From: Peptoanaerobacter stomatis
GTDB lineage: Bacteria > Bacillota > Clostridia > Peptostreptococcales > Filifactoraceae
DNA: 64,000 nucleotides
Reading direction: 5' to 3'
NCBI RefSeq assembly: GCF_000238095.2
Contig: NZ_JH815225.1
Location: forward strand, 584,724-648,723
Shown piece after piece: positions 23,592-34,276 of the stretch (the stretch's first letter is position 1; each line of letters opens with the position of its first letter). Under the pieces are notes generated by a model that was not told where the DNA came from, ran no database searches, and saw nothing but the letters and a program-made list of their open reading frames with translations. Made by a program: the position numbers and the translations under genes.

Positions 23592-24380
23592 ATGAAAATA
23601 GTTGTTTGTATGAAACAAGTACCTGATACAACTGAAGTGAGATTAGACCCTAAAACCAACACGCTTATAAGGGAGGGAGTTCCAAGTATTATAAATCCTG
23701 ATGATAAAGCCGGATTAGAAATAGCTTTGAAACTGAAAGACGAATTGGATGCTGAAGTTACAGTATTGTCTATGGGACCTCCTCAAGCAGAGTCTGCATT
23801 GAGAGAAGCTCTCGCTATGGGAGCAGATGAAGCCGTATTATTAACAGACAGAGCATTCGGTGGTGCAGATACATGGGCTACATCTTCTACAATATCGGCA
23901 GCATTAAAGTGTTTAGATTATGATTTAATAATAACAGGCAGACAGGCAATAGACGGAGATACTGCACAAGTAGGTCCTCAAATAGCGGAACATTTGGGCA
24001 TCCCTCAAATAACCTATGCACAAGAAGTAAAATTTGAAAATAACAAATTATCGGTAAAAAGACAATTTGAAGACAGATATCATATCATAGAAGTAAATAT
24101 GCCTTGCGTGATCACAGCTCTGTCAGAATCTACAAAGCCGAGATATATGACAATAAGCGGTATATTTGATGCTTATCAAAAAGAAATAAAAATTTGGAAT
24201 TTGGAAACTATAAAAGACAAAATAGATATTGCAAATATAGGTCTAAAAGGTTCACCTACAAAAGTAAAGAAATCTTATCCTAAACAAGGAAAAGCCGCAG
24301 GAGTTTTATTAAAGGATTTAACTGCTGATGAGGCGGCTCAAGCTATAGTTTCAAAACTTAAAGAAAAATATATTATATAA
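23592..24380 (+). CDS. etfB: Electron transfer flavoprotein, beta subunit
   Basis: Half of the EtfAB complex that exchanges electrons with the acyl-CoA dehydrogenase encoded downstream. The 262-residue protein has the usual start MKIVVCMKQVPDT, the segment ALAMGADEAVLLTD and GRQAIDGDTAQVGPQIAE, the conserved EtfB region that contacts AMP or second FAD. In anaerobes, EtfAB paired with such a dehydrogenase can bifurcate electrons from NADH to ferredoxin; that applies here by family knowledge only. AAGGAGGT is a strong ribosome site. It is the first gene of the operon, 15 bp before etfA. Confidence 0.95.
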   Translation: MKIVVCMKQVPDTTEVRLDPKTNTLIREGVPSIINPDDKAGLEIALKLKDELDAEVTVLSMGPPQAESALREALAMGADEAVLLTDRAFGGADTWATSSTISAALKCLDYDLIITGRQAIDGDTAQVGPQIAEHLGIPQITYAQEVKFENNKLSVKRQFEDRYHIIEVNMPCVITALSESTKPRYMTISGIFDAYQKEIKIWNLETIKDKIDIANIGLKGSPTKVKKSYPKQGKAAGVLLKDLTADEAAQAIVSKLKEKYII

Positions 24381-25469: not shown

Positions 25470-26687
25470 ATGAGCGAAAAACAAAATATGCTTGAAGGAT
25501 TAAGAGTAATAGAATTTGCAAATTTCGTAGCCGGTCCATGCTGCGGACGTCTTTTGGCGGACTGGGGTGCAGACGTAATAAAAATAGAACCTTCATTTGG
25601 AGATACTATGAGAGTTGTAGGTATGCAATGGTGTTCACCTATAGATGAAGATGAAAACCCACTTTTTGAAAATGAAAATGCCGGAAAAAAAGGTATGGTT
25701 ATAGATGCAAATACTCCTGAAGGTCAAAAAATAATATATGATTTGGTAAAAGGTGCAGACGTATTTTTGACTAACACAAGACAAAAGGCATTGGTAAAAT
25801 CAAAACTTGATTATGCCACATTAAAAGAAATCAACCCTAAGATAGTATACGGACACTTGTTAGGTTATGGAGAAAAAGGTCCTGCAAAAGATACTCCTGC
25901 ATTTGACTATACTGCATATTTTGCAAGAGGCGGTGTAGCACTCGGACTTATGGAAAAAGGAACATCCCCTTGTAACACAGCCGCTGCATTCGGTGATCAC
26001 TATGCGGGTATGAGTTTGGCTGCAGGTATATTGGCTGCAATACATAGAAGAGACAAAATAGGTAAAGGTGAAAAAGTAAATGTAGCATTATTCCATACAG
26101 CGGTTTTCGGTATGGGATTGCCTGTAGTAAGCTCTCAATACGGATATGAAATGCCTATAACAAGACGTAGACCACCAAATCCTATAAACACTACATTTAA
26201 AACTCAAGATGGAGAATGGATACAAGTAGCATTCTTTCAATATGAAAAATGGTTCCCTAACTTCTGCAACATAGTTATAGAAAGACCTGATTTAATAGGC
26301 GGAAAATTCTCTACTTTAAAAGGCGGAGTGGCAAACTTGGACGAATTCATTCCTATTCTTGAAGACATATTCATTCAAAAACCTTCTCAAGAATGGATAA
26401 AAAGACTGTCAGAAGCCGGTATTCCTTTCGAAAAATTACAAACACCGGGAGAAGTATTAAATGATGAACAATGCTGGGCTAATGATTATCTTTTCAAACA
26501 CACATATGAAAATGGACATGAAGGTGTACTTTACAACACACCTGTTCTATTTGAAGAAAACGGAATAAAAGAATTTGTAAGAGCTCCAAAATTAGGAGAA
26601 CATACAGATGAAACTTTAAAACAAATAGGATATACAAAAGAACAAATAGACGAGCTTAAAGCTAAAAAAGTAATATTACAAAAATAA
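25470..26687 (+). CDS. hadA: Family III CoA-transferase, HadA/FldA type
   Basis: Moves CoA from the pathway's acyl-CoA product to the 2-hydroxyacid, making the hydroxyacyl-CoA for the dehydratase. The 405-residue CaiB/BaiF fold is shown by LRVIEFANFVAGPCCGRLLADWGADVIKIE and DYTAYFARGG. The expected catalytic aspartate is D176 in AFGDHYAG. Its position between etfA and the dehydratase genes matches Stickland reductive operons of clostridia. The substrate (2-hydroxyisocaproate, phenyllactate or another hydroxyacid) cannot be read from the sequence. Confidence 0.9.
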   Translation: MSEKQNMLEGLRVIEFANFVAGPCCGRLLADWGADVIKIEPSFGDTMRVVGMQWCSPIDEDENPLFENENAGKKGMVIDANTPEGQKIIYDLVKGADVFLTNTRQKALVKSKLDYATLKEINPKIVYGHLLGYGEKGPAKDTPAFDYTAYFARGGVALGLMEKGTSPCNTAAAFGDHYAGMSLAAGILAAIHRRDKIGKGEKVNVALFHTAVFGMGLPVVSSQYGYEMPITRRRPPNPINTTFKTQDGEWIQVAFFQYEKWFPNFCNIVIERPDLIGGKFSTLKGGVANLDEFIPILEDIFIQKPSQEWIKRLSEAGIPFEKLQTPGEVLNDEQCWANDYLFKHTYENGHEGVLYNTPVLFEENGIKEFVRAPKLGEHTDETLKQIGYTKEQIDELKAKKVILQK

Positions 26688-26813: not shown

Positions 26814-28040
26814 ATGGCAGAAGCTACTGAGAAAAAAAGTGCAACGAAGATAATAAACGGACTATTGGCTCAATCATATAAAGAAGCTTGGGAGGCTAAA
26901 GAAAAAGGCATACCTGTTGGTTGGTCAACATCAGTATTTCCACAGGAATTGGTTGAATGTTTTGGCTTACCGCTATGTTATCCGGAGAATCAAGCTGCCG
27001 GACTTGCCGCAAAAAGAGAATCTCTAAGATTGCAAGAATCAGCAGAATCTCTCGGATACTCAATAGATCTTTGTGCATATGCAAGAACAAACTTCGGATT
27101 TTTGGAAGAAGGTGGTAATACTGAGGTTTTAAGAATGCCGAAACCTGATTTTGTATGTTGCTGTAATAATATATGCAACATGGTTGTAAAATGGTACGAA
27201 AATTTAGCAAAAGAATTGAACATCCCTTTAATAATGATAGACGTTCCGTACAATGATGAATATGAAATATCTCCAAGAAGAATAAAATATTTCAGAAAAC
27301 AATTTGAATACGGAATTAAACAATTAGAAGAAATATCCGGCAAAAAATTTGACCCTAAAAAATTATCGGAAGTAATGGAAATATCAGCTGAAAACGGAAA
27401 ATTATGGAAAGAATCTATGCAGCTTTCAAAAGATAATTATCCTTCTCCTATGAACGGCTTCGACTTATTTACTTATATGGCGATTATAGTTTGCTATAGA
27501 GGAAAAAAAGAAACAACAGACGCTTTCAAATATTTGATAGAAGAATTGAAAGAAAATGCTAAAGAAGGTAAATCAAGTTTCAGAGGTGAAGAAAAATACA
27601 GAATAATGATGGAAGGTATACCTTGTTGGCCATACATAGGATACAAAATGAAAACTTTAGCAAAATACGGAATAAATATGACAGGTAGTGTTTATCCTTA
27701 CGCATGGGCACTTGAATATGAAAAAGATGACCTTGACGGATTGGCAAAAGCGTACAGCTCAATGTTTAACAGCGTAAACATAGAAAAAATGTCAGAATAT
27801 AGAAATCAAGCATTAGATGACGGTAACTGCGTCGGAGTACTATATCATATGAATAGAAGTTGCAAACTTATGAGTTTCGTTCAATATGAAATGGCAAGAC
27901 AAGTAGCAAAGCACAGCCATTTACCATATTCAAGCTTTGACGGAGATCAGGCGGATCCGAGAGGTTTCTCCGAAGCACAGTTTGAGACGAGAGTTCAAGG
28001 ACTTGTAGAAATTATGGATCAACATAAGGAGGCGAAATAA
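26814..28040 (+). CDS. hadB: 2-hydroxyacyl-CoA dehydratase, alpha subunit (HadB type)
   Basis: With HadC it eliminates water from a 2-hydroxyacyl-CoA through a ketyl-radical mechanism, after one-electron activation by HadI. The 408-residue protein keeps the cysteines expected to bind the alpha-subunit [4Fe-4S] cluster: C87 (DLCAY), a Cys group at 115-117 with C121 nearby (FVCCCNNIC), and C350 in HMNRSCKLMSF. The family marker SFDGDQADPR is near the C-terminus. The start is preceded by GAGGTG. Its stop is one base from the hadC ATG. Closest in feel to isocaproyl/phenyllactyl-type dehydratases rather than hydroxyglutaryl-CoA dehydratase. Confidence 0.93.
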   Translation: MAEATEKKSATKIINGLLAQSYKEAWEAKEKGIPVGWSTSVFPQELVECFGLPLCYPENQAAGLAAKRESLRLQESAESLGYSIDLCAYARTNFGFLEEGGNTEVLRMPKPDFVCCCNNICNMVVKWYENLAKELNIPLIMIDVPYNDEYEISPRRIKYFRKQFEYGIKQLEEISGKKFDPKKLSEVMEISAENGKLWKESMQLSKDNYPSPMNGFDLFTYMAIIVCYRGKKETTDAFKYLIEELKENAKEGKSSFRGEEKYRIMMEGIPCWPYIGYKMKTLAKYGINMTGSVYPYAWALEYEKDDLDGLAKAYSSMFNSVNIEKMSEYRNQALDDGNCVGVLYHMNRSCKLMSFVQYEMARQVAKHSHLPYSSFDGDQADPRGFSEAQFETRVQGLVEIMDQHKEAK

Positions 28041-28041
28041 A

Positions 28042-29169
28042 ATGCTTAAACAACTTTTAGAGAAATGTGAAGATATAGCTTTAAATCCTAAAAAATATGT
28101 TTGTGACTATATTGAAAAAAGCGGCAAAAAAGCAATAGGTATGATTCCTGTTTTTGGACCTGAAGAATTGGTTGATGCTGCAGGTATGTTTCCTGTAGGT
28201 CTTTGGGGCGGATACAATGTTAAACTTGACCTTTCAAAACAATATTTTCCTGCGTTTTGCGCATCTATAGTTCATGCAATTATAGAATTAGGTTTAAACG
28301 GTACTTATAATATGTTAAGCGGTGTCGTAATGCCGGGAATGAGCGATACACTTATATCTCTAAGTCAAAACTGGAGATCAGGCGTAAAAAATATACCTTC
28401 AATATTCATAGTATATCCTCAAAACAGAAAATTGGACTGCGGGGTTGAATATTTAGTAGAAGAATTGGAATTTGTAAAAGATAAGTTGGAAGCTATATGT
28501 GGACACGAAATTAAAGATGAAGAAATACAAGAAAGCATAAAACTGTATAATGAGCATAGAGCACTTATGAGAGAGTTTTCAATGTTAGCATCATCTCATC
28601 CTAATACAATAAAGAACAGAGACAGAAGTTTTGTATTCAAGAGTGCATATTTCATTCCTAAAAAAGATCATACTGAAATGGTAAAGCAAATAAACGAGGA
28701 ATTAAAAAAATTACCTGAAGAAAAATATGACGGTAAAAAAATAGTTGTTGCAGGACTTATATTCGATGATCTTAATATACTTGACATATTAGAGCAAAAC
28801 AAGATAAGAATAGTTGGAGATTATTTGGCACATGAATCTGTACAATATAATACAGATGTTCCTGAAGTTGGAAAAAACGCTTTGGAAAGATTGGCTAACC
28901 AATGGAAAAACATAGAAGGATTTTCAGCAGCTTATGAACCTAACAAATTAGTAGGCGAATTATCAATAGAATTGATGAAAAAGACAAAAGCTGACGGAGC
29001 TATGTTTGCACAAACCAAGTTTTCAGATTTAGACGAATATGATATGCCTCTTTTTGTAAAAGATATGAGAGATGCTCATCTTCCTGTTCTTGCAATAGAA
29101 GTGGATCAACAAGATGCAAACAGTGAACAAATAAGAACAAAAATCCAAACTTTCGCTGAAATGCTGTAA
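28042..29169 (+). CDS. hadC: 2-hydroxyacyl-CoA dehydratase, beta subunit (HadC type) with altered cluster positions
   Basis: Partner of HadB, 375 residues, recognised from GPEELVDAAGMFPVGLWGG, SGVVMPGMSDTLISLSQNW and the ending IEVDQQDANSEQIRTKIQTF. In HadC proteins as I recall them, the beta-subunit cluster is held by cysteines in ACSI, GMCDTL and KFCD. Here those places read FCASI (C73, A74), GMSDTL (S101) and KFSD (S328). If the recalled alignment is right, this subunit cannot bind its [4Fe-4S] cluster in the usual way. The reading frame is otherwise intact and well conserved, so this is not simple decay. GGAGG inside the end of hadB is the ribosome site. Confidence 0.9.
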   Translation: MLKQLLEKCEDIALNPKKYVCDYIEKSGKKAIGMIPVFGPEELVDAAGMFPVGLWGGYNVKLDLSKQYFPAFCASIVHAIIELGLNGTYNMLSGVVMPGMSDTLISLSQNWRSGVKNIPSIFIVYPQNRKLDCGVEYLVEELEFVKDKLEAICGHEIKDEEIQESIKLYNEHRALMREFSMLASSHPNTIKNRDRSFVFKSAYFIPKKDHTEMVKQINEELKKLPEEKYDGKKIVVAGLIFDDLNILDILEQNKIRIVGDYLAHESVQYNTDVPEVGKNALERLANQWKNIEGFSAAYEPNKLVGELSIELMKKTKADGAMFAQTKFSDLDEYDMPLFVKDMRDAHLPVLAIEVDQQDANSEQIRTKIQTFAEML

Positions 29170-30597: not shown

Positions 30598-31383
30598 ATG
30601 AGCAAGATATATACACTTGGTGTTGATATAGGCTCTACAGCATCTAAGTGTATTATGTTGGAAGACGGAAAAAACATAATTGCCTCTTCCAAAGTAGATG
30701 TAGGAGCCGGCACATCAGGACCGATAAGAGCAATAAATGAAATCTTGGAAAAAACCGATATGAAAAGAGAAGATATAAGCTATATAATGGCTACAGGTTA
30801 TGGTAGAAACTCTCTTGAAGAAGCCGATTCTCAAATGTCCGAGCTTTCATGCCATGCAAAAGGTGCATATTTTCTGTTTCCAAATGTAAGAACTATAATA
30901 GATATAGGCGGACAAGATTCAAAAGCTTTAAAAATAGATGAAAACGGTATGTTGGAAAATTTTGTTATGAATGACAAATGTGCTGCCGGAACAGGAAGAT
31001 TCTTGGATGTAATTGCCAATGTATTGGAAGTCGACATAGAAGATCTGGAAAAATTGGATGAACAGTCTACTCAAGATGTTCCTATAAGTTCCACTTGTAC
31101 AGTTTTTGCAGAGTCTGAGGTTATATCTCAACTGTCGAGAGGTACAAAGATACAAGATATAGTAAAGGGAATACATACCGCAATAGCAAGTCGCGTAGGT
31201 GCTCTTGCTAAAAGAGTCGGTATGAAAGATGATGTTGTTATGACCGGAGGTGTAGCATTAAATAAAGGAATGGTAAGAGCATTGGAAAAAAATACAGGTT
31301 TTAAATTGCATACAAGCGAATATTGTCAGTTGAACGGCGCATTAGGTGCCGCATTATTTGCATATCAAAAAGCAAACAAGTAA
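30598..31383 (+). CDS. hadI: 2-hydroxyacyl-CoA dehydratase activator (HadI/HgdC type)
   Basis: Homodimeric [4Fe-4S] ATPase that injects one high-energy electron into HadBC. The ASKHA fold is seen in GVDIGSTASK, IIDIGGQDSK and MTGGVALNKG. The cluster cysteines shared between the two subunits are C128 in NDKCAAGTGRF and C167 in STCTVFAESEV, at the same places as in HgdC. At 261 residues it has the usual length. Here the activator follows the dehydratase and dehydrogenase genes rather than preceding hadBC as I recall for C. difficile. GTAGGTG is the likely ribosome site. Confidence 0.95.
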   Translation: MSKIYTLGVDIGSTASKCIMLEDGKNIIASSKVDVGAGTSGPIRAINEILEKTDMKREDISYIMATGYGRNSLEEADSQMSELSCHAKGAYFLFPNVRTIIDIGGQDSKALKIDENGMLENFVMNDKCAAGTGRFLDVIANVLEVDIEDLEKLDEQSTQDVPISSTCTVFAESEVISQLSRGTKIQDIVKGIHTAIASRVGALAKRVGMKDDVVMTGGVALNKGMVRALEKNTGFKLHTSEYCQLNGALGAALFAYQKANK

Positions 31384-31425: not shown

Positions 31426-32532
31426 ATGAATAATGAAAATACTAATGTTGTTCCACTAAGTACAGTTTTTGGAGTTGCGTCTGTATGGTTCGGCGCACAC
31501 GTCGGTGGAGGTTTTGCAACAGGAAATCAAACAAGAACGTTTTTCGTAAAATTCGGTTATCCGTCCATATTCTTACCGTTTATAATAGTCGCATTGATAG
31601 GATTTGTATTTTATGAAGGTATATTATTTGCAAGAAATAACAATGAATACAACTATCACAACTGGATAGAAAAGCTTTGTGCACCTTACGGTAAAATAAT
31701 GGGATACATATTCGATATAGCATATTTGCTACTTACAATAGTTGCAGTAGGTGCATCAATAGCAGGAAGTGCGGCACTTTTAGAAAATTTATTTAATTTA
31801 CAATATATAATAGGTGTGGCTATAACAGGTGTAATATTCTTTGTACTTACTATCTTCGGCGCCGATCTTGTAAGAAAAGCGTCAACAGCTATCACTTTAT
31901 TGATACTTATATTCCTTACTATAGTTACAGTATCAGGATTAAAAGCAAATATAGGTAATCTTAATATAATAATGGAAACAAAAGAAACTGCCGCTCCTAT
32001 GAGTACAGTTTTATATAACGGTCTTAAATATGCAGGTTTCCAATCTTTGGTATTAGCTATAATGCTAGGTGCGTCAAAACCTCTTACTACCAAAAAATCT
32101 GTAAAACAATTCGCAATACTCGGTGTTATATTGAACGGTGTAATGATAACTATGTCATGTTTAATGATGTTAGCACACTTATCACTTATAAAAGACGAAA
32201 CATTACCTATACTTACAATAATTAAACAATTAAACAGTACACCTCTTCTATACGCTTATTCCATAACATTGTTCCTGGCATTTGTATCTACAGGAGTTGG
32301 CTGTATATTCGGTATAGTTGCAAGATATGAAAATTCATTTGAACAAATAGGTGATATAACAAAGAGAAGAATGTTAATATCATTAGTTTCTATGATAATC
32401 TCCATGTTCATATCATTAGTCGGACTTAACACATTGGTTGTAAAAGGCTACGGATATCTTGGAATACTTTCTATATTCTTCTTGATAATACCTACAATAG
32501 TTTTAGGTATAATTAAAAACAGAAAATATTAA
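31426..32532 (+). CDS. YkvI-family membrane transporter
   Basis: A 368-residue membrane protein with ten or so hydrophobic spans and the motif WFGAHVGGGFATGNQT near the N-terminus, typical of COG3949/YkvI. These are distant relatives of amino-acid carriers of the APC superfamily, and no substrate is established to my knowledge. Its position at the end of the had operon, 42 bp after hadI, suggests uptake of the fermented amino acid or exchange for a product. AGAAAGG is the ribosome site. The operon's strong terminator lies at 32671. Confidence 0.85.
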   Translation: MNNENTNVVPLSTVFGVASVWFGAHVGGGFATGNQTRTFFVKFGYPSIFLPFIIVALIGFVFYEGILFARNNNEYNYHNWIEKLCAPYGKIMGYIFDIAYLLLTIVAVGASIAGSAALLENLFNLQYIIGVAITGVIFFVLTIFGADLVRKASTAITLLILIFLTIVTVSGLKANIGNLNIIMETKETAAPMSTVLYNGLKYAGFQSLVLAIMLGASKPLTTKKSVKQFAILGVILNGVMITMSCLMMLAHLSLIKDETLPILTIIKQLNSTPLLYAYSITLFLAFVSTGVGCIFGIVARYENSFEQIGDITKRRMLISLVSMIISMFISLVGLNTLVVKGYGYLGILSIFFLIIPTIVLGIIKNRKY

Positions 32533-32734: not shown

Positions 32735-32771
32735 AATATCTGTTGTGGACACTCTAACAGATATTTTTTAT
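32735..32771 (+). terminator. Second hairpin with T run
   Basis: AATATCTGTT and AACAGATATT form a ten-base-pair stem followed by TTTTT on the plus strand. It overlaps the 3' end of the minus-strand oxidoreductase gene and may be a backup terminator for the had operon. Confidence 0.6.
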
Positions 32772-34276
32772 TTAAAATCCATATATTTAGTCCATATACT
32801 AACTTCTGATAAAGACGGATGTGCAACCATTGTCTTATTCGTAAGCTCTATAGTATTAGGATTCAGATTACGTTTATAATTTTCTTTTCTTAATCTTTTT
32901 GTAAGCTGTGAACCTATTTCTTCATTTATAGGTTGTATTATCTTTTCTCCCGCATTCATAAGCTCTACATATGGCTGTAATAATATTGATGCCTCATCAC
33001 CTATTATATGAACTCCTAATATTTTTTTACTGTCTTTTTCTATTATTATTTTTACAAATCCGTCACTTTCTTCTCCCTCATTATATCCGAGTGCAAAGCC
33101 TTTAGCAGTCTGATAATAATAATGCAACGCCACTTGTATTTTATATCCTTTTTTTCTTGCTTCTTTTTCTGTAAGACCTACATGAGCAACCTGTGGATAT
33201 ATATATGTTACCGCTGGCACAGCATCATAACTTGCAAACTCATAATCATTATCCTTAGCATAAAATAAATTATGTGACAATATCTCCGCTTCATAATTAG
33301 CTTTGTGTCTGAATTGATATTTCCCGTTTATATCTCCAATCGCATAAACTCCGTCAACCGTAGTTTCTAAAAATTCATTTGTCTTTATATATCCTTTTTC
33401 CAACTCTATAGATGTATTTTGTATATCAAGTGTATCGGCATTACTCATAACACCGGGGGCTACTATTATTTCATCTGATTTTACACTGTATAATCTTCCG
33501 TTTGATATATTTTTAAATTCAAGCACTTTTTTTCCGTCTTGCATATAAGTTCTTATTGTGTCTTTATTTGTATATACATCTATACCATATTTTGAGAGTA
33601 TTTCAGGTATAGCAACTGAAACATCTTCTTCTTCTTTGGGTAATAAATACATATTATGTTGTACTATATTTACTTTTGAACCAAGTGCAGACAATATATG
33701 TGCAAATTCCACGCCTATATATCCACCGCCTATGACTGTAACACTTTCATATGGTTTTTTAGGGAATTTATCTCCAAAAAAACTTTCTGAAGTTAAATAC
33801 CCTACTTCTTCAAGACCTTCTATCTTAGGAACTTTTGTTCTGGCGCCTGCTCCTATTACTATCTTATCAGCAGTTATAATCTCATCTTGCTTTGCACTAT
33901 CATTAAAAACTACTTTTATTTCTTTATCTGATATAAATTTTGCAGTACCTTCATATACAGTCAAATTTTCTTTACTTTTGTAATATTGGTATACGTCTTT
34001 ACTTTCATCTATCTTTTGCCATACTCTTTTTGAAACTTTGTCGAAATCTACGGATATATCCTTTATATTTATCCCTATTTTAGACGCTTTTTGTGCCTGT
34101 CTTATAAAATCTGCTACCGTTACCATTACTTTTGTAGGTATACAACCTCTTGTAAGACAAGTACCGCCAAATTTTCCGTTTTCTATCATTGCACATTTCA
34201 AGCCTTTTTCCAAAGCTTCATCTACAACTATATTAGCGCTTCCGCTACCTATAACTATAATATCAAATCTTTTCAT
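32768..34276 (-). CDS. Class I pyridine nucleotide-disulfide oxidoreductase (dihydrolipoamide dehydrogenase/mycothione reductase-like)
   Basis: FAD- and NAD(P)-dependent dithiol enzyme of 502 residues. The N-terminus has the FAD fingerprint IIVIGSGSANIVVDEA, then the redox disulfide GGTCLTRGCIPTK (CxxxxC, about residues 40-45). An NAD(P) fingerprint VTVIGGGYIGVEFA (about 182-195) and the second FAD motif TTVDGVYAIGDI follow. The dimerisation domain ends in AHPSLSE, a variant of HPTxxE. An unusually long segment of about 30 residues (INEEIGSQLTKRLRKENYKR...) precedes that motif. No lipoyl enzyme complex is encoded nearby, so a lipoamide role is not supported; a low-molecular-weight disulfide or metal ion is possible. 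Confidence 0.87.
   Translation of the reverse strand: MKRFDIIVIGSGSANIVVDEALEKGLKCAMIENGKFGGTCLTRGCIPTKVMVTVADFIRQAQKASKIGINIKDISVDFDKVSKRVWQKIDESKDVYQYYKSKENLTVYEGTAKFISDKEIKVVFNDSAKQDEIITADKIVIGAGARTKVPKIEGLEEVGYLTSESFFGDKFPKKPYESVTVIGGGYIGVEFAHILSALGSKVNIVQHNMYLLPKEEEDVSVAIPEILSKYGIDVYTNKDTIRTYMQDGKKVLEFKNISNGRLYSVKSDEIIVAPGVMSNADTLDIQNTSIELEKGYIKTNEFLETTVDGVYAIGDINGKYQFRHKANYEAEILSHNLFYAKDNDYEFASYDAVPAVTYIYPQVAHVGLTEKEARKKGYKIQVALHYYYQTAKGFALGYNEGEESDGFVKIIIEKDSKKILGVHIIGDEASILLQPYVELMNAGEKIIQPINEEIGSQLTKRLRKENYKRNLNPNTIELTNKTMVAHPSLSEVSIWTKYMDFK

What the first reader, a model, noticed from the sequence alone, without database searches (positions are those of the whole stretch)
28042..29169. 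HadC-type dehydratase subunit without the usual cluster cysteines
The sequence shows FCASI (C73, A74), GMSDTL (S101) and KFSD (S328). Recalled HadC sequences have ACSI, GMCDTL and KFCD, with these cysteines on the beta-subunit [4Fe-4S] cluster. The alpha subunit keeps its cysteines and the activator is complete. This may be a dehydratase with one cluster, or with a different beta-subunit cofactor, as in some hydroxyglutaryl-type enzymes.
Basis: partly seen in the sequence, partly recalled or inferred. Interest (0 to 1): 0.55.

Follow-up and report, generated by a model that had tools for sequence, protein, structure and literature searches.

The report
Dehydratase subunit lacking its iron-sulfur cluster
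A bacterial enzyme that helps ferment amino acids appears to have lost, in one of its two subunits, the cysteines that hold an iron-sulfur cluster thought to relay its electron; the same loss has recurred in related enzymes of other bacteria, which suggests that this cluster is not always needed.

Summary
The window HadC (375 aa) aligns to C. difficile HadC (3o3m_B) end to end, with A74, S101 and S328 where that protein has cysteine. C73 is only the neighbouring residue. HadB keeps its three cluster cysteines and the activator is complete. The loss is specific: of 25 beta-subunit columns conserved in 81 three-cysteine relatives, the window changes five (the three Cys and the Pro-Glu after the third), and none of 71 such HadB columns. 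The HadC of [Eubacterium] yurii, same genus, shows A/S/S too, and dN/dS is low. Comparable beta subunits arose at least five times: window-type HadC, a relative (L042), FldC-type subunits of fldAIBC clusters, HgdB-type subunits (Y/D/N) of Peptoniphilus, Fusobacterium gastrosuis, Treponema vincentii and the window's own genome, and L238. P. asaccharolyticus, in print as a user of the hydroxyglutarate pathway, has no other dehydratase. The window activator is of HgdC type, not HadI type. Best reading: an active one-cluster dehydratase, with the electron passed directly to the HadB cluster. Cluster absence, activity and electron route are inferred. A new variant of a known enzyme family.

The parts
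28042..29169 (+). hadC-type gene, beta subunit of a 2-hydroxyacyl-CoA dehydratase, without the three beta-cluster cysteines
   Evidence: 3o3m_B 421.8 bits over 4-375; PF06050 257 bits; model aligned to 3o3n_B, Z 53.6, rmsd 1.3, 372 residues
28258..28263 (+). codons C73 (TGC) and A74 (GCA): first ligand position is A74; C73 is its neighbour
28342..28344 (+). codon S101 (AGC), second ligand position, opposite BzdN Cys100
29023..29025 (+). codon S328 (TCA), third ligand position, opposite BzdN Cys327
29029..29034 (+). codons L330 and D331, replacing the Pro-Glu that follows the third cysteine in three-cysteine relatives
   Evidence: Pro in 80 of 81 three-cysteine rows, 0 of 18 others
26814..28040 (+). 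hadB, alpha subunit, cluster cysteines C87, C121, C350 kept
   Evidence: NF052455 783.7 bits over cut-off 750; 3o3m_A 657.9 bits
30598..31383 (+). ATP-dependent activator of HgdC type (not HadI type), C128 and C167 present
   Evidence: PF01869, TIGR00241; activator tree; 86% to own HgdC, 57% to E. yurii HadI
25470..26687 (+). family III CoA-transferase, hadA-like
   Evidence: PF02515
29252..30385 (+). acyl-CoA dehydrogenase, acdB-like
   Evidence: best NCBIfam model acryloyl-CoA reductase, 465 bits, below cut-off 640
23592..24380 (+). electron transfer flavoprotein subunit, etfB-like
   Evidence: PF01012
24396..25403 (+). electron transfer flavoprotein subunit, etfA-like
   Evidence: PF01012, PF00766
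22217..22939 (-). GntR/FCD-type regulator, divergent from the operon; whether it regulates the operon was not tested
   Evidence: PF00392, PF07729

Best explanation
The window encodes a functional (R)-2-hydroxyacyl-CoA dehydratase, probably for 2-hydroxyisocaproyl-CoA in the reductive leucine branch, whose HadC subunit no longer binds a [4Fe-4S] cluster. Shown by sequence: loss of all three ligand cysteines, intact HadB ligands, intact activator cysteines, conserved fold, low dN/dS, and at least five separate origins of such subunits. Inferred: HadC serves as scaffold and docking partner, and the ATP-driven activator puts its electron directly on the HadB cluster, which does the ketyl-radical chemistry alone and must also hold the electron between turnovers.
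For: Ligand positions A74, S101, S328. HadB C87, C121, C350 are Cys in 99 of 99 distinct alpha-beta pairs, 81 three-cysteine and 18 not. Of 25 beta columns at least 97% conserved in the 81, the window changes C74A, C101S, C328S, P330L, E331D only; of 71 such alpha columns, none. L007, HadC of E. yurii, is A/S/S at 61% identity. Nei-Gojobori dN/dS 0.18 for HadC window-L007, 0.13 for a three-cysteine control pair, with synonymous sites near saturation. A tree with the trait columns masked needs 5 changes, all forced by starred branches, bootstrap 5-6. P. asaccharolyticus, listed in PMC8473912 as using the 2-hydroxyglutarate pathway (passage), has three PF06050 genes: alpha, Y/D/N beta, and a double-cubane protein. 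F. gastrosuis, Anaerococcus nagyae and Anaerosphaera multitolerans have only the alpha plus Y/D/N beta pair. Published fldAIBC primers for Peptostreptococcus (PMC10968020) match exactly upstream of an A/S/S FldC in L053; that paper's passages report indoleacrylic acid from P. anaerobius and P. russellii with full fldAIBC.
Against: No protein was studied here: iron content, activity and electron route are all unmeasured. The reviews read describe a cluster in each subunit and electron entry through the beta-type cluster (passages), so the direct route contradicts the accepted path. HadC is evolving faster than usual for its HadB (beta identity 0.46-0.53 to the seven three-cysteine relatives listed, at alpha about 0.70, against mean 0.59 and 5th percentile 0.52 for 226 three-cysteine pairs with alpha 0.68-0.80), which could also be relaxed constraint. 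Recurrent Ser at 101 and 328 hints at something beyond simple loss.
Confidence: 0.65

Rival explanations
1. The emptied beta site holds another redox cofactor, such as FMN or riboflavin, that relays the electron in place of the cluster.
For: PMC11574389 (passages) says some dehydratases, naming the 2-hydroxyglutaryl-CoA enzyme, carry a flavin besides Fe-S; the window activator is of the hydroxyglutarate (HgdC) type.
Against: Replacements differ between lineages (A/S/S, Y/D/N, P/S/S), so no common new binding motif is seen; the model keeps the HadC fold within 1.3 A over 372 residues, with no added domain. Flavin binding itself was not tested.
Confidence: 0.12
2. Ser101 and Ser328, with a third ligand, still bind a metal site: an oxygen-ligated Fe-S cluster or a mononuclear metal.
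For: Ser at both places arose in the window lineage, L042, the FldC clade and L238; Ser is written with both codon classes even between sisters (window S101 AGC, L007 TCA), as if Ser itself were kept. PMC11574389 notes rare serine and aspartate ligands to Fe-S clusters (passage).
Against: The first position is Ala, Val, Pro or Tyr in most of these, usually not ligands; the Pro after the third cysteine, next to the site, is lost in 18 of 18 rows of the order survey, though L238 keeps it.
Confidence: 0.12
3. HadC is decaying or has a role without catalysis, and the operon does not make an active dehydratase.
For: HadC diverges faster than HadB.
Against: Open frame, dN/dS 0.18, 20 of 25 conserved beta columns and 71 of 71 alpha columns kept; operon present in both genomes of the genus that have a HadC; related losses sit in pathways reported as active.
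Confidence: 0.06
4. Other HadC cysteines (C9, C21, C73, C133, C153) form a rearranged cluster site.
For: Five cysteines are present.
Against: Window HadC and L007 HadC share only C9; C73 is Ala in L007.
Confidence: 0.03

Closest known systems
(R)-2-hydroxyisocaproyl-CoA dehydratase HadBC with activator HadI, C. difficile (3o3m, 3o3n, 3o3o)
   Same: HadB 657.9 bits and HadC 421.8 bits, full length; same fold (Z 53.6); activator, alpha and beta genes together in both
   Different: Three beta-cluster cysteines replaced by A, S, S; activator of HgdC type; activator gene after the acyl-CoA dehydrogenase rather than before hadB
2-hydroxyglutaryl-CoA dehydratase HgdAB with activator HgdC, Y/D/N type (own genome L206; Peptoniphilus, F. 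gastrosuis, T. vincentii)
   Same: Also lacks the three beta cysteines; its activator group includes the window activator
   Different: Different replacements (Y/D/N), beta only about 36% identical to the window HadC, sits with Na+-pump decarboxylase, CoA-transferase and GltS genes
FldBC of fldAIBC clusters (Peptostreptococcus type, L053, L214)
   Same: Beta subunit A/S/S with GLSDGL and KFSDSD or KFSESD; CoA-transferase, activator, acyl-CoA dehydrogenase and etf genes alongside in L214
   Different: Separate origin on the tree; about 44% identical to the window HadC
BzdNO and the double-cubane protein DCCP (8s02, 6eno)
   Same: Same fold, Z 45.0 and 42.6; third-site motif K-F-C of BzdN aligned
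   Different: BzdN binds an [8Fe-9S] cluster by six cysteines (PMC11971306, passages and section 8); the window has Ser opposite two of them (100, 327), Phe opposite 293, and at best C73 opposite one (phmmer)

Membership tests
HGD-D family (PF06050) | profile match over the curated cut-off | tested here: met
   257.1 bits, cut-off 28.4
HadBC-type two-cluster dehydratase | HadB family and alpha-cluster cysteines | tested here: met
   NF052455 783.7 bits over cut-off 750; C87, C121, C350
HadBC-type two-cluster dehydratase | three beta-cluster cysteines in HadC | tested here: not met
   A74, S101, S328
HadBC-type two-cluster dehydratase | NCBIfam HadC equivalog NF052456 over cut-off | tested here: not met
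   486.4 bits, cut-off 700; a three-cysteine HadC of P. indolicus also fails at 498.6, so this says little
HadBC-type two-cluster dehydratase | HadI-type activator | tested here: not met
   activator groups with HgdC, 100/97 with E. yurii HgdC
HadBC-type two-cluster dehydratase | dehydration of (R)-2-hydroxyisocaproyl-CoA | not testable with these tools
   needs purified enzyme
One-cluster 2-hydroxyacyl-CoA dehydratase | about four Fe per heterodimer | not testable with these tools
   needs iron analysis; about one cluster is recalled, from no call, for C. sporogenes FldBC and A. fermentans HgdAB
Benzoyl-CoA reductase N subunit / double-cubane protein | six cysteines for [8Fe-9S] | tested here: not met
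   Ser opposite Cys100 and Cys327, Phe opposite Cys293; at most C73 opposite one; NF040772 112 bits, cut-off 350

The most novel reading that the evidence does not exclude
The beta cluster of 2-hydroxyacyl-CoA dehydratases is dispensable and has been discarded at least five times. In the window organism and E. yurii neither dehydratase has one. The activator can therefore feed the alpha cluster directly, and the electron-parking role given to the beta cluster is not universal. The loss may pay off in mucosal anaerobes by lowering iron need or oxygen damage.
Probability: 0.55. Interest if true: 0.75.

Novelty: new variant of a known kind. Interest (0 to 1): 0.62.

Why it matters
The accepted mechanism sends the activating electron through the beta-type cluster and stores it there between turnovers (PMC11574389 and PMC8473912, passages). 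Natural enzymes without that cluster would make its role directly testable. Genomes such as G045 and G013 carry a three-cysteine HadC and a cysteine-less FldC in one cell, a built-in comparison. The affected enzymes serve amino-acid fermentation (glutamate by gene context, aromatic amino acids and leucine by homology) in anaerobes of people and animals, indoleacrylic acid formation among their likely roles.

Tried and rejected
C73 as a shifted ligand: rejected, because the neighbouring column is the invariant one in this family and L007 has Ala there. Pairwise phmmer does put BzdN Cys73 opposite C73, but one residue of slack exists there and one cysteine cannot replace three.

Pseudogene or assembly error: rejected on the sister species and conservation.

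Compensating changes in HadB: columns special to the window pair were listed; position 103 is Thr in the window pair and in the Y/D/N partners, and I read nothing from so small an overlap.

G002 is E. yurii ATCC 43714 (same contig places as G770, the genome of L128), and the window genome is in the same genus. The g8 genus is taken as Peptostreptococcus from the primer match in one genome, G045, and from C. difficile-like HadC in the same family; it is named by no record.

Literature: ten searches of an open-licence library showed no paper on cysteine-less beta subunits in their listings; most subscription papers are not held, and I did not see the HadBC structure paper. The beta subunits of A. 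fermentans, F. nucleatum and C. sporogenes were not checked. Docking of the activator near the axis between the two subunits is recalled from the DCCP and Mbd complexes, which I saw only as PDB entries.

Limits of counts: one search gave matches in 96 of 393 genomes; four places were not fetched (G385:C48, G335:C33, G341:C1, G263:C7). One search gave 120 beta ORFs, 116 distinct rows with the window: 98 CCC, 18 not. The tree left out 11 near-identical CCC rows. The pair counts rest on 99 distinct pairs out of 104 in which both genes lay on the fetched stretch. The class search gave matches in 25 of 391 genomes; 30 of 33 places were fetched: 16 CCC, 7 A/S/S, 6 Y/D/N, 1 P/S/S, own and repeated rows included. 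The tree used 74 rows chosen by hand from these sets.

Full report
Observation. The gene at 28042-29169 encodes a 375-residue HadC homologue, matched over its length to the beta subunit of C. difficile 2-hydroxyisocaproyl-CoA dehydratase, 3o3m_B (421.8 bits). At the three places where 3o3m_B has cysteine, in FACSI, GMCDTL and KFCD, the window has A74, S101 and S328. The last two align with Cys100 and Cys327 of BzdN, which PMC11971306 lists among its cluster ligands. C73 sits one residue before the first place. That neighbour is cysteine in 24 of 81 three-cysteine relatives, the ligand column in 81 of 81, so C73 looks like a leftover of an FCCSI-like sequence.

Surroundings. The operon reads etfB, etfA, a family III CoA-transferase, hadB, hadC, an acyl-CoA dehydrogenase and an activator. 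HadB passes the NCBIfam equivalog cut-off (783.7 against 750) and keeps C87, C121 and C350, opposite BzdO Cys95, Cys128 and Cys380. PMC11971306 (section 8) says HadB has the same coordination as BzdO. The activator has C128 and C167; that these are its cluster cysteines is recalled.

Specificity. Among 99 distinct alpha-beta pairs from the order survey, 81 have all three beta cysteines and 18 do not. The three alpha cysteines are present in 99 of 99. Of 25 beta columns conserved to at least 97% in the 81, the window changes five: the three cysteines and the Pro-Glu after the third. Of 71 such alpha columns it changes none. The Pro is present in 80 of 81 and in 0 of 18. HadC of L007, E. yurii (G002 and G770 have the same places), is A/S/S too and shares only C9 with the window HadC. 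Nei-Gojobori dN/dS between them is 0.18, against 0.06 for HadB and 0.13 for a three-cysteine pair, with synonymous sites near saturation. HadC has diverged somewhat faster than usual for its HadB. A model from 33 sequences (mean pLDDT 90.4) fits 3o3n_B over 372 residues at 1.3 A, Z 53.6. So the gene is maintained, and what was lost is the cluster site.

Recurrence. A quick tree of 106 beta subunits needs four changes between three-cysteine and other states. A careful tree of 74 rows, with the trait columns masked, needs five, all forced by starred branches, bootstrap range 5-6. The groups are: window plus E. yurii HadC (A/S/S); L042 (C/S/S); the FldC clade (A/S/S, V/S/S, and partial S/S/C and S/T/C); the HgdB clade (Y/D/N); and L238 (P/S/S). 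The label counts changes; that they are losses rests on the cysteines being shared with BzdN, MbdN and DCCP. Among 80 named loci, all 26 Y/D/N or Y/D/D rows are from Peptoniphilus, Anaerosphaera, Anaerococcus, F. gastrosuis, T. vincentii and E. yurii; C. symbiosum is CCC.

Function of the relatives. The own-genome Y/D/N locus lies with a biotin carrier, a Na+-pump decarboxylase subunit, a CoA-transferase pair, a carboxyltransferase and GltS, the layout of glutamate fermentation through 2-hydroxyglutarate. PMC8473912 lists P. asaccharolyticus among users of this pathway (passage). Its genome has three PF06050 genes: the alpha, the Y/D/N beta, and a protein over the double-cubane cut-off. F. gastrosuis, Anaerococcus nagyae and Anaerosphaera multitolerans have the alpha and Y/D/N beta alone. 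For the FldC clade, both fldAIBC primers printed in PMC10968020 match L053 exactly, in the activator gene upstream of an A/S/S FldC; passages of that paper report more indoleacrylic acid from P. anaerobius and P. russellii with the full cluster than from P. stomatis with an incomplete one. These facts make it likely that cysteine-less beta subunits belong to working enzymes. None of the passages seen measured these proteins.

Activator. The window activator is 86% identical to the HgdC activator of its own genome and 89% to that of E. yurii, but 57% to E. yurii HadI and 56% to C. difficile HadI. On a careful tree it is sister to E. yurii HgdC (100/97) inside the HgdC group. E. yurii keeps a HadI-type activator in its had operon, so cysteine loss most simply came before the activator change. 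The own genome has six PF01869 places.

Mechanism. The accepted route is activator to beta cluster to alpha cluster, the clusters being 12 A apart, with the electron returning to the beta-type cluster after each turnover and at least 1000 turnovers per ATP (passages). With no beta cluster, the most economical route is activator to alpha cluster. The alpha cluster would then also hold the electron, predicting fewer turnovers per ATP or more activator. This route and its consequences are inference. A flavin in the beta site and an oxygen-ligated metal site remain open. The second gains a little from repeated Ser at 101 and 328 and from the use of both Ser codon classes.

Verdict. The enzyme is a HadBC homologue that fails one defining feature of the two-cluster type, tested here. 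One-cluster dehydratases may not be new biochemically (recalled reports of about one cluster for C. sporogenes FldBC and A. fermentans HgdAB, from no call). The recurrent, specific loss of the beta ligands showed in none of the listings of my ten searches of an open-licence library.

Noticed in passing
window 30598-31383: The activator of this had operon is of HgdC type (sister to E. yurii HgdC, 100/97) while E. yurii had and C. difficile had use HadI-type activators: an apparent activator replacement.
   Followed up: yes
L206 8281-11789 (own genome, C1 about 1863280-1866788): The second dehydratase of the same genome also lacks all three beta cysteines (Y/D/N), so neither of its two dehydratases has a beta-cluster site.
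   Followed up: yes
L126 3123-5646, L127 3149-5649: F. gastrosuis and T. vincentii carry alpha and beta subunits 86-94% identical to those of the own hgd locus, far above what their phyla suggest; looks like transfer between bacteria of different phyla.
   Followed up: no
L053, L214 and other g8 loci: FldC of fldAIBC clusters lacks the beta cysteines while HadC of most of the same genomes keeps them.
   Followed up: partly
L238 1498-2628: A lone P/S/S beta subunit in another family of the class, keeping the DPE after the third site; a fifth separate origin.
   Followed up: partly
window HadC position 294: This column, opposite BzdN Cys293 (a published ligand of its double cubane), is Cys in 60 of 81 three-cysteine HadC relatives and Phe in the window and E. 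yurii.
   Followed up: no
L001 1276-2550 (own genome C1:1914632-1915708): A double-cubane protein (NF040772, 492 bits over cut-off 350) with an activator-like gene nearby at C1:1912922.
   Followed up: no
window 31426-32532: A 368-residue protein right after the activator, with only a weak match to a spore-germination permease model (TIGR00912, below cut-off); perhaps an amino-acid carrier.
   Followed up: no
window 32768-34276, minus strand: A disulfide-oxidoreductase-like flavoprotein, best model dihydrolipoyl dehydrogenase but below cut-off.
   Followed up: no
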